Source of the DNA: an uncultured Planctomycetaceae bacterium | GTDB lineage: Bacteria; Planctomycetota; Planctomycetia; Planctomycetales; Planctomycetaceae | Assembly (NCBI GenBank): GCA_937916515.1 | Contig: CALFSX010000260.1 | Span: forward strand, 1-60,365 | Length of the DNA: 60,365 bases | Direction: 5' to 3' | Part shown: positions 3,201 to 31,372 of the stretch, piece after piece | How positions within the stretch are numbered: position 1 is the stretch's first letter | Layout: each line of letters starts with the position of its first letter | The notes under the pieces: model-generated | What the model was told of the DNA's origin: nothing | Seen by the model: only the letters and a program-made list of their open reading frames with translations | The model's database searches: none | Program-made: the position numbers and the translations under genes

Positions 3201-3904
3201 TGAGAATACGCACTACCGCCTCGACCTGACCATGGCATCACGTCGTGGCCCTGATAGATCTTGCCTCGTTCGAAGCACTTCTTTAAAAAGTCCCAGATGG
3301 TTTCGTTGTTTTCAGTGCTGAACGTGAAGTAGCTACCACCCCATTCCGGATTGCCCAGCTTCTCCACCAGCTGATGAGCGGCAGCCGTTTCCGTTTTGCC
3401 GCTCGGTGCCGTGATGGTGATCTGTGTGTCTGTTCCCAGATGTTCCGCCATCTCGCGCAGTTGATCGGGATTGTCCCAATCCATCCAATAGCCCAGTCGT
3501 TGTGACTGCTCGGTCTGTCGAGCCGCAAACTTCAGAACTCGGCGTTTACATTCGTTCACGAAGTTGTCGATGCCGTATTCGTAGACAGCCGACTTGGTGC
3601 CCAGCCCAAGCTGTTTTTCAACTTCAACTTCCACCCACAACCCCTGACAGTCGAAACCGTTTTGGTATCGCTGATCGTGGCCCGTCATGGCGAAGAATCG
3701 TTGGTACGTATCTTTGTACGTGCGTCCCCAGGCATGATGCACGCCCATGGGGTTGTTGGCGGTAATCGGCCCATCCAGGAAGCTCCACCGCTTCTGACCA
3801 CGGTTCTTTTCACGCAGCTTGCGAAAAGTGTCGTGCTGATTCCAAAAATGCAAAACCGAATGTTCACCAGGAACGAAATTACTGTCTGATACGGACTGAA
3901 ACAT
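233..3904 (-). CDS. ileS: isoleucyl-tRNA synthetase with altered HIGH and KMSKS motifs
   Basis: This class I aminoacyl-tRNA synthetase (1223 aa, cytoplasmic) charges tRNA-Ile with isoleucine using ATP. The N-terminal nucleotide-binding region has [16 protein letters not shown] at about residues 50-65, in the place of the HIGH motif, read here as GVHH. The KMSKS loop is represented by [12 protein letters not shown] around residue 713, so it reads MHKS. An editing-domain-like region ([10 protein letters not shown], about residue 270) is present, and the C-terminal part is the anticodon-binding helical domain. The length is greater than the 940 or so residues of E. coli IleRS and nearer to the longer eukaryote-like form. 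Both signature changes keep the second His and the second Lys-Ser. The gene is intact from ATG to TGA. I see no clear ribosome binding site and no T-box-like leader in the 380 bp upstream. Confidence 0.93.
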
Positions 3905-4286
3905 TGGAAGCCGTTGAATAAAAATCTGAAGTCACAGAATGGCCAAAGAGCGGCGAATTCTAGTTATCCGACGCAAAAGTCGCAAAGAACCGACACCAGA
4001 TCAGATCGACGGAGCCCTGACTTTTCATGAATTAAGCCATGCTCCCGAAGATTTTCCGTCATTTGAGCAAAAACGCAGAACCGAATGAACGGCTTGTCCG
4101 GTTCGTAATCTTTCAAACTGGCCAGGATGCTCCGGCGAAACCAGGCAGAACAAAAGACATGCCTGCCCCGTGCGTGCACTTCGCCAGGCTGGTCAATTTG
4201 TTTTTCCCGGCGCAGTCCGACTCACGGCTTGCCCAGAGTGGAAACCGCAGAACGCGACAGCACACACCCGGAAACGCTGATGGAGC
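3905..4286. other. intergenic, nothing recognised
   Basis: These 382 bases separate ileS from the TPR gene, both on the minus strand. Open frames here are short and unlike any family I know. I see no convincing terminator or riboswitch. Confidence 0.5.
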
Positions 4287-6491
4287 TTAACCAGCGCTCG
4301 GATCGGCAGCGGCTGGTTCGCTCGCTTTCATTTCTTCCAGAATTCGACGATGTTCGTCAGCGAGCCCGGACTCATTCAAGGCATCATACACACGAACCAG
4401 CAACTCGCGAGAATTCACGCTTTGCATATTCCGTGGCAACGACGCTTCCAGATCACGTCGTGCTTCTTCCCAACGTTGCATTCCAATAAACACTTCGGCT
4501 CGCGTTGACAGTGCGTCAGCATTTTCAGGCAACATCGCCAAAACGCGGCTGATCAAATCCAGTGCTCGCTGCAAGTCATCTTTTGAAGGTGCATTCTGGC
4601 GTACCAAAGCAATGGCAAGATTATTCAAAACCATCGGATTTGCGTTGTCCAGCGAATACGCTCGTTCAAGATTACGTCGAGCTTCGGAGACTTGATTGGC
4701 TCCCAGATATTTGGTGCCAACCATGTTATAGATCTCTGCAGTGGCAGAACCTTCTGCCAGCAGGCGAGTCAAAAGTTTGTCAGCAGCCTTGGCGAACTTC
4801 CCATTTGATGTCGCCACGGCAGCCAGCTTATCCAATGCCGGAATATCCACTGCCCCCACGCGCAACGCCTGCTCCATCAATTGCATGGCCGCCGCTTCAT
4901 CAGTGAACGCTGCGTCGTTCAAGTGCTGGTCAAACAAACCCAAAAGTGCTCGACCTTCAACAACAGCCAGCAGCACTCGTTCCCCCTGCGTCGCGGGAAC
5001 CTTTTCAACAGAGTCGGTTTTCCCGTCAATCGAAGTTATTTCTGCAGCCGTCTTCAGCTCAACAAGCAGATCGATCACGTCAGAAAAACGATTCTTCATC
5101 AACAGCACGTTGCCATAGGTAATGGAATCGGCATAAGACAATTCTGCTCGACGGGCTTCAAAATCAGTCAACAGTTCGTCAACGATACTCTCCGCTGTTG
5201 CAGCATCGCCGGAAGCGGCATAAACGGAAGCCTGAATCGCCTTAACGCGAGGTTCAACGGTTGAATGAGCATCAAGCACCTGAATTGCTTCTTCGTATCG
5301 ACCGGAAATTGTCAACAATTCAGCCAGAACCGTGTCCTGCTTTAGCGTGCGTTCAGAACTCGCCAATAGCGTTTCAATGGCGGGCTTCAGGTCGTCCGCC
5401 TTAAACTTTGCCTGTCGATGTGAAAGGACAAGCACCTGTTCAACGGCAGCGAAGTTGGCAGGATCAACTTCAAGCGCCTTTAGCAGAAGCCGTGCGGCTT
5501 CGTCACGATTCAGCAACGATTGAGACAGTCTGTTGGAAGCTGCGGTTACATACAGAGACGAAAGTGCAGACCGCAATGCAGGAGAGTCTTTCAGCGACAG
5601 GCCTTCCTGCAGTGCCTGGGCCGCATCATCCATGCGTCCGGACAGAACCAACGCTTCCGAATAGTTCGTCCGAGCATCTTCATCACCGGGATTGTCCAGC
5701 AGACGTCCTTCAAAGTAATTGGTGGCATTTGCCAGATGAAATTGAATCTGCTCCGGACTGCGGCGTAGCGTTGGCTGCAGTTGCACCTTCGCCAAAATCA
5801 GACTTAAAGCCGGAACATGCTCGACAACTCGCAACAGCCGACTTTCCGCTTCAAGGAATTTACCATTCTGAAGATGCATCATGGCCAACAGCTTGTTCGC
5901 ATCCAGGTTGTAGGGGTCGCTGTCGATAGCCTGTCGAAGTTGGCCTTCGCATTCTTCACGAGCCCACGGCAGTACCGGATTTCCACTCAATACCTGATTC
6001 GCCACCCAGATTCTGGCCGTTGAATATCCCTGCGGACCTGATATCACCAGCGACTGTAGATAGGAAAGCCCCTTCGCCTGCTGACCATTCTGTAACAGGT
6101 GCAGTGCCAACTGAAACACATAGCGTTTTTCGTTTGGTCGAAGCTTAACCAATCCTTCAAGGTAGATACTGGCCCGATCACTATCTTCATTTTTTATCGC
6201 GTCGGTCGCGGCTGTTTCGTACATCCCAACAACGGAATCACGAGGAGCACTTTTCAACCACAGCAGAAATCCGGACCCAACAATTCCAAACAACACAAAC
6301 GGAAGGGCAATCAACAGCTGGCCAAACTTGCGAGAGAAAAACCAGCGTTCAATAAAACCGAAGATCCAGGAGAACACGTTTCGAGGGCGAAACCAATCGC
6401 GAAACTCCGGCATGCTACGCTTTTCACCGGCATCAGCGAAGGAGGCCCTTGCAGCGGGGGAGGTACTTTTTTGACCAGTCGTTTCGGACAT
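4287..6491 (-). CDS. membrane-anchored tetratricopeptide-repeat protein
   Basis: The 734-aa product starts at the ATG at 6491 (MSETTGQKST). A basic, aromatic stretch is followed by one membrane segment at about residues 56-79 (FGQLLIALPFVLFGIVGSGF), and then by a long run of helical TPR-type repeats to the end, for example RPNEKRYVFQLALHLLQNGQ and a clear repeat near the C-terminus (NANPMVLNNLAIALVRQN). The protein should sit in the inner membrane with the repeats on one face, acting as a protein-interaction scaffold. An upstream ATG at 6533 has a better purine-rich site (AAGGTG) and would add 14 residues; longer versions would run into the exosortase gene, which ends at 6553. Large TPR proteins are frequent partners of exosortase/exopolysaccharide systems, which fits its place directly downstream of the exosortase gene. 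Its exact function is not known. Confidence 0.85.
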   Translation of the reverse strand: MSETTGQKSTSPAARASFADAGEKRSMPEFRDWFRPRNVFSWIFGFIERWFFSRKFGQLLIALPFVLFGIVGSGFLLWLKSAPRDSVVGMYETAATDAIKNEDSDRASIYLEGLVKLRPNEKRYVFQLALHLLQNGQQAKGLSYLQSLVISGPQGYSTARIWVANQVLSGNPVLPWAREECEGQLRQAIDSDPYNLDANKLLAMMHLQNGKFLEAESRLLRVVEHVPALSLILAKVQLQPTLRRSPEQIQFHLANATNYFEGRLLDNPGDEDARTNYSEALVLSGRMDDAAQALQEGLSLKDSPALRSALSSLYVTAASNRLSQSLLNRDEAARLLLKALEVDPANFAAVEQVLVLSHRQAKFKADDLKPAIETLLASSERTLKQDTVLAELLTISGRYEEAIQVLDAHSTVEPRVKAIQASVYAASGDAATAESIVDELLTDFEARRAELSYADSITYGNVLLMKNRFSDVIDLLVELKTAAEITSIDGKTDSVEKVPATQGERVLLAVVEGRALLGLFDQHLNDAAFTDEAAAMQLMEQALRVGAVDIPALDKLAAVATSNGKFAKAADKLLTRLLAEGSATAEIYNMVGTKYLGANQVSEARRNLERAYSLDNANPMVLNNLAIALVRQNAPSKDDLQRALDLISRVLAMLPENADALSTRAEVFIGMQRWEEARRDLEASLPRNMQSVNSRELLVRVYDALNESGLADEHRRILEEMKASEPAAADPSAG

Positions 6492-8113: not shown

Positions 8114-10027
8114 TTAAGCTGCTTCCGGGCGTACTGGACCGATGGATTGAGCCGCCCCCTTGGGAGTTCGCTTCTTCAGATCGAACAGTCCAAAAATCTC
8201 TGAAGCGTTCATTCCCAGTGAAATGTTGTCGTTGTCGCCTTCACCAAGAATTGCTTCGGCCAGCTCGCGTTTTTCGCGAAGTACTCGGTCGATCCGTTCT
8301 TCGATTGTATCCTTGCAGATAAATCGAGTCACAATCACAGGAGCCGTCACGCCAATTCGGTGAGCTCGATTGATCGCCTGATCTTCGATGGCCGGATTCC
8401 ACCAACGATCATACAAAAACACATAGTGCGCGAATTGCAGATTCAGCCCGACCGCACCTGTGCCATAACTCATCAAAATAATATTGGCGTTCGGGTCTTC
8501 CTTGAACTTTTTCAGAATCGGTTCACGCTTCTTTGTCGGCACACCACCGTGATAAACCAACGGGTTGAACTGCTGAAGTCGTTCTTCCAGCCAGTCGATT
8601 GTCTTCGTCCACTGACTAAACAAAATCGCCTTGGCACCACTTGCGGCAACTTCTTCCATATCTGCCACAAGACGTTCCAGCTTGGCGCTTTCGTTTGTCA
8701 ATGGGTCGTAGTTTGTGATCTGCTTCAGCCGCATCACAAGTTCGAAAACATGCTGCACAGAAATCGAATCACCAAGTTCATTCAGCTGAATGATGCCTTC
8801 TTTTTCCGCAGTGCGATAGGTGTATTGCTGAGCGTCCGTGAGTTGAAGTTCGGCATCACGGTCAATTCGCGGAGGCATGTCCTTCATGACCAGATCTTTA
8901 GTCCGCCGCAAAATGTGTTCGCTGGCTAAAGCTGACAATTGTCTCAGGTCGGGCGTCGCGTGTGCTGGAATCACTTCCATAAATTCAAACAGCGATGCCA
9001 GTTCTTCCGGACGGTTTTCGATGGGCGTTCCCGTGAGCGCCCAACTGCGTCTTCGGCTGATTCCGCGAGCAACCTGGGCTGTCCTGGAGTCTCGATTCTT
9101 GATTCGCTGAGCCTCATCCAAAACCAACAAATCAAACTTCGGCGCATCTTCTTCAGAGAACTCCGCAAGATCGCGAGTCATGGATTCATAATTGGTGATC
9201 AGAATCGGCACGCCAGGCATCGTCCATAACATACGTCGCCGAGCACCGCTGCCTTCGACGGTGACGATTGGCAATTCTTCGGCCCATGTGCGGAATTCAC
9301 GCTGCCAGTTGGGAATGAGCGGTTTCGGACAGATCAGCAGGATTCGATTCACCTGACCGCTTCTCAGCAACAGGCGAATGCCGGTGATGGTCTGCATGGT
9401 CTTGCCCAGACCCATCTCGTCGGCCAGCAAAGCCGAATGCCTGGCAAACATCCACGCAATGCCCTCGTACTGATACGGAAAGGGCTCGAACGGCATAATC
9501 AGTTCCTGCCCGGCCAGCCACGATTCCAGTGGAGGCTGTAGCAGGTAAAACAGTCGATCCTGCAATGATAGCGCGTTCGGCGGCGGCTTAACTCGAGTCC
9601 TCTGCGGCTTGCCGTTTTCGTCCAGTCGCTCGGGCTTTTTCTGAGGCGTCGGCTTGTTCAGAACGATTCCGTCAGACGACGTTTCGTTGGGCTGAGCAGG
9701 CGGCTGAAAGGCGAGACCTTCCGGCAATGTCAAACCAATACACTTCACTGGAATTCGGCGAGGTTTCCACGACGGCACAAAATCGGCGCGCTTGTTTAGC
9801 GGCACAGAAACGACATCCATCTGTGGAACTCGTTTCAATGCAGGATTGAAACCCGCACTGGCCAGCGCAGCTGAACCGCTTAAGTCCAACTTGTGACATT
9901 CCACCAACAGCTTTGGCGAATCACAGTCAATACCGGCGCCGAAATGCTGACCGCCACTGACATCGCCTTCAGTTTTCAAGACAACGTCAGCCGCCGTTTT
10001 GCTGGTGAAATTTATGTCGTCGCTCAT
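8114..10027 (-). CDS. SNF2-family DNA helicase/translocase
   Basis: The 637-aa product is a superfamily 2 Swi2/Snf2 ATPase. All helicase motifs are visible in order: motif [16 protein letters not shown], motif [14 protein letters not shown] (DEAQ box), motif [14 protein letters not shown], motif IV region [17 protein letters not shown], motif [13 protein letters not shown], and motif [13 protein letters not shown]. About 150 residues precede the ATPase, low in complexity near a Pro/Lys-rich linker and without a recognisable domain. Bacterial enzymes of this kind translocate on double-stranded DNA, and some remodel RNA polymerase or act in defence, but no nuclease or SWIM domain is fused here. 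The start codon overlaps the stop of the upstream 178-aa gene (ATGA), implying translational coupling. The C-terminus ends PEAA. Confidence 0.92.
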
Positions 10028-10560
10028 CGCGTCATCACCGTCTTCACAGTTTCGTTCAAGGCCTGTTGAACCCGTTCCAGCGGCTCTTCCAGATCAGCCT
10101 GACCTGGAATCAAATGCAACTGCTGCTTCACAAACTTGCTGTCGTCTTCATGACCCAGATGGAATCTTAAACGGCGCCCACCCAACTCTTCAGAGCTGGA
10201 CGTCACTCGCCCACCAGATCCGTACCGTTCAGAGTCCTCTGACGTACAGGCCACGGGAGTGCTTGTATGGTTTCGAAGTTCCAGCAAATCCGGATCGCAT
10301 GTCAGCACAATATCCGGCTTTATGGAAACTCGATCCAACAGCGTCTTCCCGATTAGTTCGCCCAGCAACCAGGGACGCAACATTTTTCCGTACAGAATCT
10401 CCTGCGTGCGATCAGGACGCACGGGAGTTGTGCATTGAAACTCCAAAGGACGGCCATTGCTGTTGGTGACCAACAGGCCTCCAACGCATCCTCGTCCTTC
10501 AACTTCAACTGTGGCTATAAACCCCAGCCGCAATTTGTCTGAATGTCCGTCTTTCGACAT
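10024..10560 (-). CDS. hypothetical protein coupled to SNF2 helicase
   Basis: A 178-aa soluble protein that I do not recognise. The N-terminal half alternates beta-strand-like stretches ([31 protein letters not shown]); a central segment ([17 protein letters not shown]) looks like a buried strand followed by an acidic turn; the C-terminal third is charged and helical. There is no signal peptide, membrane segment or Cys-based metal site. The gene overlaps the SNF2 start codon by four bases, so the two are almost certainly made together, and this protein may be the helicase's partner or specificity factor. That role is inferred from context only. Confidence 0.75.
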
Positions 10561-11158
10561 CCGATGGTTCTCGCCTTGGGTTTGTGTGAAGAAACGTGTA
10601 TTTGATTAAAATTGAAGCGTGCCCGTGCACCACTTCGAATGTCGGTTCACAATTACATGCAGCTGCTTACACGACGAGCGTTCGATTAATTTTGCTGACA
10701 AAAACACGCCTTTAACAGGACGCCCCAGATATCAGGTGGCAGCAAAACCTGCCGATTCTGCCTGCCATTCAAACCGCTCGCCGTTGAGTCTCATCGACGC
10801 AGCGATTAGGTCGTCTTTAGCGATCATCGCGAACGATCGTTTAGGCGAATTGCGATTCTTGTCGATTCGCCTTACAACATGGCAGCAAAGGCCGACTTCA
10901 GATCCTGCATCACAAGAAACACAGACAAATTTGCAAGTTGAGCTCACGAATCACGTCGCTGGTGGCGAGGCATCACCATCAAATCGCCAGTAAAAAGTCA
11001 AGCGACGTCAAAATGAGTATCCGACCGGAAGCGGCTTTGCGGCACGACTTGACATAATCGTACAACAGAAATCGTGCGAAAATTCGACGACTGCGAATGC
11101 ACATAGTTTTCAACCGTCGCCAAGCGGCGACTCACACCTCGTATTTCGGACACCGATC
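10561..11158. other. divergent intergenic region upstream of pyrE
   Basis: These 598 bp separate the helicase pair (leftward) from pyrE (rightward), so both promoters should lie here. Two inverted repeats stand out: AGGCGAAT at 10843-10850 with ATTCGCCT at 10865-10872, and GCACGA at 11042-11047 with TCGTGC at 11072-11077. A TTGACA occurs at 11049-11054 without a good -10 box at normal spacing. I see no convincing gene. Confidence 0.45.
11116..11131 (+). promoter_or_regulatory. short hairpin in the pyrE leader
   Basis: A perfect 6-bp stem (GTCGCC/GGCGAC) with an AAGC tetraloop lies 28 bases before the TTG start of pyrE. It has no T-run, so it is not a terminator. It could influence initiation at a weak start site; this is inference. 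Confidence 0.35.
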
Positions 11159-29734: not shown

Positions 29735-29989
29735 CTTGTGCGAACTTCCTCGCGGCGCACGCGTCTTAGTTCGCGTAGGGCACAATGCCCGTTCATTCAA
29801 GTTCTGGAAGACTCAACACAAAAACCGAAAGTCATGTTGCCCGCATCCCTCACCATCATCGAACGCGAGAGCCTGCGACTGCCCGCGCGCCCGCTGGCGG
29901 ATGTGATTCCGTATCTGTTGCTTACATGACACTCGGCGACTTTGCGTCAATGCAAAGCCCGGTGTCATCGCGACACCGGGCTTTTTTTG
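29735..29989 (+). ncRNA. candidate structured RNA between lpdA and the tRNA array
   Basis: A protein-free stretch of about 255 bases with successive short hairpins: GTGCG/CGCAC, then ACGCG/CGCGT around 29760-29776, then GGGCA-CAA-TGCCC, and further down CGCC-CGCT-GGCG. It ends in a perfect intrinsic terminator (29954-29989). Because lpdA has stopped 100 bases earlier, the terminator could belong to an independent small RNA. It does not contain the signature sequences I know for RNase P RNA, tmRNA or SRP RNA. A read-through lpdA 3' region is the simple alternative. Confidence 0.35.
29954..29989 (+). terminator. strong Rho-independent terminator
   Basis: AAAGCCCGGTGTC at 29954-29966 pairs perfectly with GACACCGGGCTTT at 29972-29984 across a 5-base loop, followed by more T. 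It ends either lpdA read-through or a small RNA. Confidence 0.9.
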
Positions 29990-30284: not shown

Positions 30285-30356
30285 GGCGCGGTCGTCTACA
30301 GGAAGGACACATGGGTTTTCACCCCGTGGACGCCGGTTCGAATCCGGTTCGCGTCA
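30285..30356 (+). tRNA. tRNA-Glu (TTC)
   Basis: Acceptor GGCGCGG/TCGCGTC (two G-T pairs), D arm with GG in its loop, anticodon stem ATGGG/CCCGT enclosing TTTTCAC (anticodon TTC), T arm GCCGG-TTCGAAT-CCGGT, discriminator A, no encoded CCA. First canonical gene of the array. Confidence 0.88.
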
Positions 30357-30422
30357 ATGATTATCGAGATGCAGCAACCGGAAACACACAAAAGAGCTTC
30401 CCGAAGTCTGTTGCACAACGAT

Positions 30423-30493
30423 GCCCGGTGAGTGTGGTGGATGCACGCAACGCTTCGAACGTTGTAGACAGGGTTCGATTCCTTGACTGGGTA
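30423..30493 (+). tRNA. tRNA-Arg (TCG), unusual position 8
   Basis: Acceptor GCCCGGT/ACTGGGT, anticodon stem CAACG/CGTTG enclosing CTTCGAA (anticodon TCG), T arm CAGGG-TTCGATT-CCTTG, discriminator A, no encoded CCA. Position 8 is G where tRNAs almost always have T. Confidence 0.82.
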
Positions 30494-30541
30494 CTGAATT
30501 AAAGCTGGCTTGCAACGACAGGCCGGGAGACATTTGAATAT

Positions 30542-30615
30542 CGGGATGTAGCGAAGTTGGCTATCGCGCCTGGTTTGGGACCAGGAGACCGCAGGTTCGA
30601 GTCCTGTCATCCCGA
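30542..30615 (+). tRNA. tRNA-Pro (TGG)
   Basis: Perfect acceptor CGGGATG/CATCCCG, D arm GCGA/TCGC, anticodon stem CCTGG/CCAGG enclosing TTTGGGA (anticodon TGG), T arm GCAGG-TTCGAGT-CCTGT, discriminator A, no encoded CCA. The most canonical member of the array. Confidence 0.92.
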
Positions 30616-30641
30616 CTGTTTTGCAATTCAACAACATAGAC

Positions 30642-30714
30642 AGTTTGGTCGTCCAACGATTCAGGACGCTGCTCTGATAAGGCGGAAACGAAGGTTCGAC
30701 TCCTTCTCGAGCTA
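30642..30714 (+). tRNA. tRNA-Ile (GAT), D-loop lacks GG
   Basis: Acceptor AGTTTGG/TCGAGCT with three G-T pairs, D arm GTCC-AACGATTCA-GGAC, anticodon stem CTGCT/GGCGG enclosing CTGATAA (anticodon GAT), T arm GAAGG-TTCGACT-CCTTC, discriminator A. The D-loop has no GG, which normally docks with the T-loop. It is outside any rRNA operon. A T-run follows. Confidence 0.78.
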
Positions 30715-30880
30715 CTTTTTGAAATACGTGCAGTATTTGATTGCAGCACACACATTAAGGGCCACCCATTCACATTAACCATTGTGGCATGATCGCAGGC
30801 TTTCCGGCTCTGGACGTCATATAAACAGCGAAATCAGAGGATCAGCCATTCGATTTTAGTATTCAGGATGTTTCGATCTC

Positions 30881-30961
30881 GGCGTTGCTTCAGAGTGGGA
30901 TCTGAGCGTGGCTGTAACCCACGTGTCATACGACTAAGCGGTTCAATTCCGTACAGCGCCA
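30881..30961 (+). tRNA. tRNA-Tyr (GTA) with class II variable arm
   Basis: Acceptor GGCGTTG/CAGCGCC, D arm TCAG-AGTGGGAT-CTGA, anticodon stem CGTGG/CCACG enclosing CTGTAAC (anticodon GTA), long variable arm with GTC/GAC stem, T arm with loop TTCAATT, discriminator A. Position 8 is C, and the first T-stem pair is an A-A mismatch. Confidence 0.84.
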
Positions 30962-30998
30962 ATAGACCATGCTTGCATGGTTCGATTGATACACACAG

Positions 30999-31073
30999 GT
31001 CCTCGCAGAGCAGTCAGGAGTGCTCGCCACCTTGTCACGGTGGAGATCGCCGGTTCGAATCCGGTTGAGGGCG
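30999..31073 (+). tRNA. tRNA-Asp (GTC), unusual position 8
   Basis: Acceptor GTCCTCG/TGAGGGC, D arm GAGC-AGTCAGGAGT-GCTC, anticodon stem CCACC/GGTGG enclosing TTGTCAC (anticodon GTC), T arm GCCGG-TTCGAAT-CCGGT, discriminator G as expected for Asp. Position 8 is C. Confidence 0.86.
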
Positions 31074-31152
31074 TTTGTTCGAAACGTTGTTTACGAATAC
31101 TTTGACAGACAAAGACCTTCACCTGCGCCACATGTTGGCGGTAGGAATTCGA

Positions 31153-31226
31153 AGCGTGGTGGCCCAACTGGCAGAGGCATCCGGTTTAAGCCCGGAAAGG
31201 TGTGGGTTCAAATCCCACTCACGCTA
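31153..31226 (+). tRNA. tRNA with Leu anticodon TAA but class I variable loop
   Basis: Acceptor AGCGTGG/TCACGCT, D arm starting GCC and closing GGC, anticodon stem TCCGG/CCGGA enclosing TTTAAGC (anticodon TAA), then only five bases (AAGGT) before the T arm GTGGG-TTCAAAT-CCCAC. Discriminator A, as in Leu tRNAs. Bacterial tRNA-Leu normally has a long variable arm, which is absent here. Confidence 0.85.
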
Positions 31227-31297
31227 AATCAAAAACAGCAGTGCAGGGCGAAGCAATTCAATGAATGACCAGGCAGAATCCTGCGACCGTATTTTCC

Positions 31298-31372
31298 GGC
31301 ACCGTAGCCCAATTTGGCAGAGGCGCTCGGCTTAGAACCGAGATGTTGGGAGTTCGAATCTCCCCGGTGCTA
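31298..31372 (+). tRNA. tRNA with Leu anticodon TAG but class I variable loop
   Basis: Acceptor GGCACCG/CGGTGCT, D arm like that of the TAA gene, anticodon stem CTCGG/CCGAG enclosing CTTAGAA (anticodon TAG), five-base variable region ATGTT, T arm GGGAG-TTCGAAT-CTCCC, discriminator A. As in its neighbour, the long variable arm of tRNA-Leu is missing. Last member of the array. Confidence 0.86.

What the first reader, a model, noticed from the sequence alone, without database searches (positions are those of the whole stretch)
31153..31372. Two Leu-anticodon tRNAs (TAA, TAG) with class I variable loops
The genes at 31153 and 31298 fold as good tRNAs with anticodons TAA and TAG. Both have only five bases between the anticodon and T stems (AAGGT, ATGTT), while bacterial tRNA-Leu is a class II tRNA with a long variable arm. 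They share an almost identical D arm, so they look like siblings rather than two independent decays. If expressed, they would carry leucine through an unusual LeuRS interaction, or another amino acid onto UUA/CUA codons. Similar short Leu tRNAs might exist in other tRNA arrays or phages, which I cannot check.
Basis: partly seen in the sequence, partly recalled or inferred. Interest (0 to 1): 0.72.

Follow-up and report, generated by a model that had tools for sequence, protein, structure and literature searches.

The report
Short-armed spare leucine tRNA genes
Two genes in a spare tRNA cluster of a Planctomycetota-like genome make leucine tRNAs without the usual long side arm; similar short leucine tRNAs recur in bacteria and phages and should be charged by the ordinary enzyme, so this is a neat example of a little-discussed but real form rather than a break in the genetic code.

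Summary
In detail: window 31153-31226 and 31298-31372 are tRNA-Leu(UAA) and tRNA-Leu(UAG) genes with 5-nt variable loops. They end an 8-gene accessory cluster; the genome has two more such clusters, long-arm tRNA-Leu for five anticodons, and one LeuRS over the family cut-off. The genes are conserved, not decaying. Both keep every published E. coli leucine determinant I scored (A73, U8, A14, A15-U48, G18G19, A20a); the long arm is not one. In one complete actinobacterial chromosome all three tRNAs reading UUA/UUG are short, so the form works as leucine tRNA without special machinery. A mycobacterial paper already notes a cluster tRNA-Leu(TAG) with a short loop. Verdict: leucine tRNAs of a known, under-described kind in an accessory cluster. 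Charging here, expression, and the cluster's purpose (spare set under translation stress or tRNA damage) are inferred, not shown.

The parts
31153..31226 (+). tRNA-Leu(UAA), 74 nt, 5-nt variable loop AAGGT, A73, 3-bp D stem
31298..31372 (+). tRNA-Leu(UAG), 75 nt, 5-nt variable loop ATGTT, A73; 75 of 75 letters identical to the gene in same-genus genome G007
30285..30356 (+). tRNA-Glu(TTC) of the same cluster
30423..30494 (+). tRNA-Arg(TCG) of the same cluster
30542..30616 (+). tRNA-Pro(TGG) of the same cluster
30642..30715 (+). tRNA-Ile(GAT) of the same cluster
30881..30961 (+). tRNA-Tyr(GTA) of the same cluster, 13-nt variable region kept; not listed by the Rfam scan at E up to 1
30999..31073 (+). 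tRNA-Asp(GTC) of the same cluster

Best explanation
They are genuine leucine tRNAs of a short-armed (class I-shaped) form. They keep the leucine identity core, so the ordinary LeuRS should charge them with leucine, and they read UUA/UUG and CUA/CUG in addition to the long-arm tRNAs already present. They belong to an accessory tRNA set spread over three clusters in this genome, most likely a spare set that helps translation when ordinary tRNAs are short or damaged. Shown by sequence: genes, shape, determinants, conservation, recurrence, a sole-reader case elsewhere. Inferred: charging with leucine here, expression, and the stress or damage role.
For: U8, A14, A15-U48, GG, A20a and A73 all present in 2 of 2 window genes, 27 of 33 short cluster Leu, 5 of 5 own long-arm Leu, against 15 of 182 other class I tRNAs of the same loci. 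Long arm not needed by E. coli LeuRS (PMC9976931, passages). Pattern with free anticodon: 126 of 127 hits called Leu. IMCC26103, complete chromosome, 38 of 38 tRNA matches read: all three UUR readers short, one LeuRS gene over cut-off. Clusters at one shared site in G007, G002 and G001: tRNAs 94-95% identical, inter-gene spacers 69-74% of ungapped positions. 557 of 561 stem cells paired over 33 short Leu, several pair types at most positions. Own genome: long-arm Leu for five anticodons and one LeuRS gene over cut-off. Three own clusters: 20 genes, 20 different anticodons (chance about 0.003 under a simple model). Cluster tRNAs (Ile, Arg) of Mycobacterium mucogenicum are expressed (PMC6582537, section 15); the Anabaena trn operon is induced by translation stress (PMC10272220, abstract and passages).
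Against: No expression or charging data for this organism. No sigma-70-like promoter by a crude scan. The cluster tRNAs probed in M. mucogenicum were not Leu. Whole-gene similarity placed the two tRNAs nearest Thr and Arg in the own genome and Met and Trp in IMCC26103; only in C. pelargi was the nearest a Leu, its short Leu(caa), for both; the test also misplaced other isotypes. 6 of 33 short cluster Leu lack at least one scored feature. The window's own inter-gene spacers cannot be aligned with relatives' (14-21% of columns, shuffled 30%), so the high tRNA identity could partly reflect exchange rather than selection alone. The published array definition (20 or more tRNAs) is not met by 8 genes.
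Confidence: 0.85

Rival explanations
1. They are decaying leftovers of a former mobile tRNA cluster, transcribed rarely or never.
For: They are redundant with long-arm tRNA-Leu; own cluster C235 keeps the gene order of a 32-gene array, so the clusters look like fragments; no promoter match; no alignable spacers with relatives.
Against: tRNA letters 81-94% identical to shared neighbours in four same-genus loci and Leu(TAG) 75 of 75 in G007; at one orthologous site tRNAs outlast spacers; stem pairing and determinants intact.
Confidence: 0.08
2. They carry an amino acid other than leucine to UUA/UUG and CUA/CUG codons (a mistranslating or recoding pair).
For: Class I shape and divergent body; nearest whole-gene neighbours in the own genome were Thr and Arg tRNAs.
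Against: Leucine determinants complete; 126 of 127 tRNAs with this D arm called Leu; in IMCC26103 such tRNAs are the only readers of UUA and UUG, where another amino acid would be ruinous; the nearest-neighbour test also failed for other isotypes.
Confidence: 0.03
3. They belong to a cryptic phage or other mobile element lying in the window and serve that element.
For: In G004 a tyrosine integrase gene runs into the terminal Leu(TAG) gene, and a relative of that integrase lies just downstream of the G050 cluster (L096 3751-4917).
Against: Flanking proteins here are a 2-oxoglutarate dehydrogenase complex upstream, cytochrome c and amidohydrolase proteins downstream; no relevant defence family among 10 window proteins; in 7 of 8 clusters examined (20 proteins) no integrase or phage family was seen; the G004 integrase has no relative in the window at E 1e-10.
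Confidence: 0.06

Closest known systems
Short-loop tRNA-Leu(TAG) of the Mycobacterium mucogenicum/phocaicum tRNA gene cluster (PMC6582537)
   Same: Cluster-encoded tRNA-Leu with a short variable loop beside a long-arm counterpart elsewhere in the genome (section 15 read)
   Different: Other phylum; that cluster holds an HNH endonuclease gene; here two adjacent short Leu genes and a third in own cluster C297
trn operon of Anabaena sp. PCC 7120 (PMC10272220)
   Same: Accessory tRNA set beside a housekeeping set (abstract and passages); cyanobacterial arrays fetched here also hold short tRNA-Leu (L271, L327, L334, L346, L368)
   Different: 26 genes on a plasmid with repressor TrcR; the cyanobacterial array L327 shares no gene order with the planctomycete array L092 beyond shuffles. 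The Anabaena record itself was not found under the accession tried
Short tRNA-Leu of phages (KVP40, Boopy, EFGrNG and others)
   Same: Same kind of D arm, 5-6 nt loop, A73; 17 of 17 short Leu in the 12 phage and plasmid records keep all six features
   Different: Carried by phages, with phage genes around them
Mitochondrial tRNA-Leu(UUR)
   Same: Leucine tRNA charged through A73 and A14 without a long arm (PMC9976931, passages)
   Different: Organelle; a separate case of arm loss (my inference)

Membership tests
tRNA-Leu, short-armed form | Leu anticodon | tested here: met
   TAA and TAG
tRNA-Leu, short-armed form | leucine identity core: U8, A14, A15-U48, G18G19, A20a, A73 | tested here: met
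   2 of 2; determinants taken from PMC9976931
tRNA-Leu, short-armed form | D arm GCCCAA..GG.AGAGG at class I distance from the T loop | tested here: met
   both match the pattern
tRNA-Leu, short-armed form | charged with leucine by LeuRS | not testable with these tools
   needs an acylation assay
ordinary class II tRNA-Leu | long variable arm | tested here: not met
   5 nt against 15-17 nt in the five long-arm Leu of the own genome
tRNA array unit (Tran/Morgado definition) | 20 or more tRNAs in one stretch | tested here: not met
   8 genes; definition read in PMC5966550 passages. Relatives' loci L092 with 32, L095 with 23 and L098 with 21 calls reach the number
tRNA array unit (Tran/Morgado definition) | at least 2 tRNAs per kb | tested here: met
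   8 in 1.09 kb
stress-induced accessory tRNA operon (Anabaena trn type) | silent normally, induced by translation stress | not testable with these tools
   no expression data

The most novel reading that the evidence does not exclude
Across bacteria and phages tRNA-Leu has a second, class I-shaped form that alone serves UUR codons in some lineages. In accessory tRNA sets leucine, the class II amino acid whose bacterial synthetase ignores the arm, sheds it because the arm is a handle for tRNA-cutting or tRNA-modifying toxins and defences, so that the set is a toxin-proof spare kit for translation.
Probability: 0.15. Interest if true: 0.68.

Novelty: new member of a known kind. Interest (0 to 1): 0.36.

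Why it matters
It removes an apparent anomaly and gives a usable rule: a bacterial tRNA-Leu without the long arm is not suspect if the D arm, A15-U48 and A73 are in place. That helps annotation and tRNA sequencing, where bacterial tRNA-Leu is taken as type II (for example PMC6297222, passages). It also gives natural evidence, in free-living bacteria, that LeuRS can do without the arm while Ser and Tyr tRNAs of the same clusters nearly always keep theirs.

Tried and rejected
Nearest-neighbour isotype test on gene bodies: not informative; other isotypes (Arg, Tyr, Asp in the own genome) were also misplaced and scores are distorted by free end gaps. Gene-order homology of the planctomycete array L092 with the cyanobacterial, Chloroflexota, Elusimicrobia, actinobacterial, phage and plasmid arrays tried: none above shuffles; the window's 8 genes gave only 4 in order (580 of 2000 shuffles do as well); own C235 gave 8 of 8, one of which is the distant ordinary Leu(GAG) gene, so 7 of 7 cluster genes. 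First conservation test counted downstream flank as spacer (tRNA 89-100%, rest 22-39%); the flanks are at different sites, so I replaced it by inter-gene spacers only. Second LeuRS in the own genome: one gene over the cut-off; the weaker matches that were listed score under 70 bits, and three of its seven matches lay below the listing. Flanks shared between the window and 23 loci compared: none but a weak polysaccharide-export protein match; G007, G002 and G001 do share their site with each other. Defence families: one weak, irrelevant hit among 10 window proteins. C. pelargi: 40 distinct tRNAs read against 49 matches, so its UUA reader is unresolved. G066: the only Leu(taa) called is short, but no Ile or Tyr gene was called either, so its tRNA set is incomplete and the case is not proof. 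The own-genome tRNA search scored 150 of 310 first-look candidates, so some tRNAs may be missing. Literature: searches led me to one paper (PMC6582537) stating a short-loop bacterial cluster tRNA-Leu; I opened only a few of the listed papers, and papers outside this open library and tRNA databases were not searched, so more may be known.

One search fixed the anticodon, so its Leu share is no test. Of the six loci that only brought in, one tRNA was called Leu(caa), four got no clear anticodon and one was not called.

Full report
Observation. ARAGORN finds eight tRNA genes at 30285-31372, the last two being Leu(taa) 31153-31226 and Leu(tag) 31298-31372. The Rfam tRNA model scores them 56.6 and 60.0 bits. 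Their variable loops are AAGGT and ATGTT. In both the D stem has three pairs and a mismatch above them, as in the ordinary Leu tRNAs of this genome by eye (sequences; position numbers are mine).

Surroundings. Upstream are the proteins of a 2-oxoglutarate dehydrogenase complex, downstream an unnamed protein, a cytochrome c protein and an amidohydrolase. A terminator-like hairpin lies at 29954-29984, between that operon and the cluster. The genome (8.33 Mb, 343 contigs, 99.34% complete; no tool named it, and its placing in Planctomycetota is my own judgement from gene content and size) has long-arm tRNA-Leu for TAA, CAA, TAG, CAG and GAG with loops of 15-17 nt, one LeuRS gene over the family cut-off, and two further clusters of divergent tRNAs: C235:20877-22197 with seven genes and C297:36093-36513 with five, including another short Leu(GAG). 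The tRNA search there scored 150 of 310 first-look candidates. The three clusters together hold 20 genes with 20 different anticodons for 14 amino acids; if 8, 7 and 5 genes were drawn independently from a 32-gene set, no overlap would be seen about 3 times in 1000. The seven C235 genes follow the order of a 32-gene array in same-family genome G022; the window's genes do not significantly so.

Conserved, not decayed. Counting only shared neighbouring genes and the spacers between them, the window's tRNAs are 81-94% identical to those of four same-genus loci, while the spacers do not align at all (14-21% of columns; 30% after shuffling). Leu(TAG) is 75 of 75 identical to that of G007. Because unalignable spacers could also mean re-assembly or exchange, the cleaner test is G007, G002 and G001, whose clusters lie beside the same LeuA-type and polysaccharide-export genes: there tRNAs are 94-95% identical and spacers 69-74% of ungapped positions. 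Over 33 short Leu genes of these clusters, 557 of 561 acceptor, anticodon and T stem cells pair, with several pair types at most positions.

Leucine loses the arm, serine and tyrosine keep it. In 24 loci of the own genome and relatives (window, L032-L034, L082-L101) ARAGORN Leu genes: 34 have a loop of 9 nt or less; of the other four, one is the ordinary Leu(GAG) gene. Of 21 Ser genes 20 keep 15 nt or more, and 9 of 9 Tyr genes, one of them in an ordinary cluster, keep 13 or more. In the viral loci 172 of 206 Leu are short, 56 of 57 Ser have 14 nt or more, 27 of 29 Tyr have 10 or more (Leu there are enriched by the search pattern).

Why leucine can. The identity review (PMC9976931, passages) reports for E. 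[quoted passage not shown] All six features are present in 2 of 2 window genes, 27 of 33 short cluster Leu, 5 of 5 own long-arm Leu, 17 of 17 short Leu of the phage and plasmid records, and 15 of 182 other class I tRNAs of the same loci. My automatic numbering may misplace some control tRNAs, so the control figure is rough.

How widespread. Short Leu occur in 8 of 10 phage and 1 of 2 plasmid records fetched. 99 of 119 loci have a single tRNA in up to 8 kb, 11 have ten or more. By my reading of the record titles 104 of 119 are Actinomycetota; the rest include Cyanobacteria, Chloroflexota, Elusimicrobia, Acidobacteria, Planctomycetota and Myxococcus. In the window's phylum 35 of 199 sampled genomes match, and the reversed pattern matched in none; one match (G119) does not look like a tRNA. 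In the viral collection the free pattern also brought a few tRNAs without a clear Leu anticodon.

Natural test of function. In the complete 1.46 Mb chromosome of actinobacterium IMCC26103, 38 of 38 tRNA matches were read; Leu(taa) twice and Leu(caa) once, all short, are its only readers of UUA and UUG, while Leu(gag) and Leu(tag) are long; it has one LeuRS gene over cut-off. These short tRNAs must deliver leucine, unless the code differs there, which I did not test. In draft G066 of the window's phylum the only Leu(taa) called is also short, Leu(caa), (tag) and (gag) long, but that draft yields no Ile or Tyr tRNA either, so a long Leu(taa) may be missing from it. Its family f14 shows exactly one pattern match in each of 6 of 6 sampled genomes, and family f42 in 3 of 3, TAA in all nine. 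For the window's pair the argument is by analogy.

What the cluster does. Inferred only. Cluster tRNAs of Mycobacterium mucogenicum (Ile, Arg) are expressed, more in stationary phase, and the authors note that the cluster's tRNA-Leu(TAG) has a short loop (PMC6582537, section 15 read). The Anabaena trn operon of 26 tRNAs is silent and is induced by translation-targeting antibiotics (PMC10272220, abstract and passages). Defence systems cut tRNA-Tyr in its variable loop; T5 tRNA-Tyr resists one of them through a different loop, though Septu cut both the host and the T6 tRNA-Tyr (PMC13096335, passages). A mycobacterial toxin prefers tRNA-Ser because of its variable loop (PMC11541572, passages). 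So loss of the arm as an escape is possible but untested for leucine.

Mobility. The window's flanks look chromosomal and are shared with none of the 23 other loci compared, save one weak match; in 7 of 8 clusters examined no integrase or phage family was found among 20 neighbouring proteins. In G004 a tyrosine integrase gene runs into the terminal Leu(TAG) gene, and a 33%-identical relative lies just downstream of the cluster of G050. So clusters of this kind seem able to move, at least in part by such integrases; this is not shown for the window.

Verdict. The sequence claim is confirmed; the striking reading is not needed. The pair is a new member of a known kind; the breadth of the short form, and its sole-reader role in at least one genome, is the part worth passing on.

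Noticed in passing
L083 (G004:C1:5958000-5976000) 9781-11127; L096 (G050:C315) 3751-4917: A tyrosine integrase gene runs into the terminal tRNA-Leu(TAG) gene of the G004 cluster, and a 33%-identical relative lies just downstream of the G050 cluster, in both cases facing the array: a possible vehicle for these clusters.
   Followed up: partly
L244, L246, L247, L248, L249 (viral contigs): tRNA-like genes with the Leu-type D arm but odd anticodon loops: ARAGORN gives no three-base anticodon in four and no call in one; possibly shifted loops or suppressor-like tRNAs.
   Followed up: partly
L082 9170 (G004) and L118 (Streptomyces phage LuckySocke; record annotates a tRNA-Ser at 5201): tRNAs called Ser(act) and Ser(gct) with variable loops of 5 and 4 nt, rare exceptions to Ser keeping its arm; isotype doubtful.
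   Followed up: no
L461 (G066:C44:15144-15216): Short tRNA-Leu(UAA) as the only Leu(taa) called in a draft of the window's phylum whose tRNA set is incomplete; families f14 (6 of 6 sampled) and f42 (3 of 3) each show exactly one such match, as a housekeeping gene would.
   Followed up: partly
window 29954-29984: 13-pair terminator-like hairpin between the 2-oxoglutarate dehydrogenase operon and the tRNA cluster.
   Followed up: no
window 30881-30961: tRNA-Tyr called by ARAGORN but not listed by the Rfam scan at E up to 1; perhaps the weakest gene of the cluster.
   Followed up: no
L327 and L346: Nostocales arrays of 26 and 27 tRNA calls share 21 genes in order with each other (no shuffle of 2000 reached it), but no order beyond chance with the planctomycete array L092.
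   Followed up: yes
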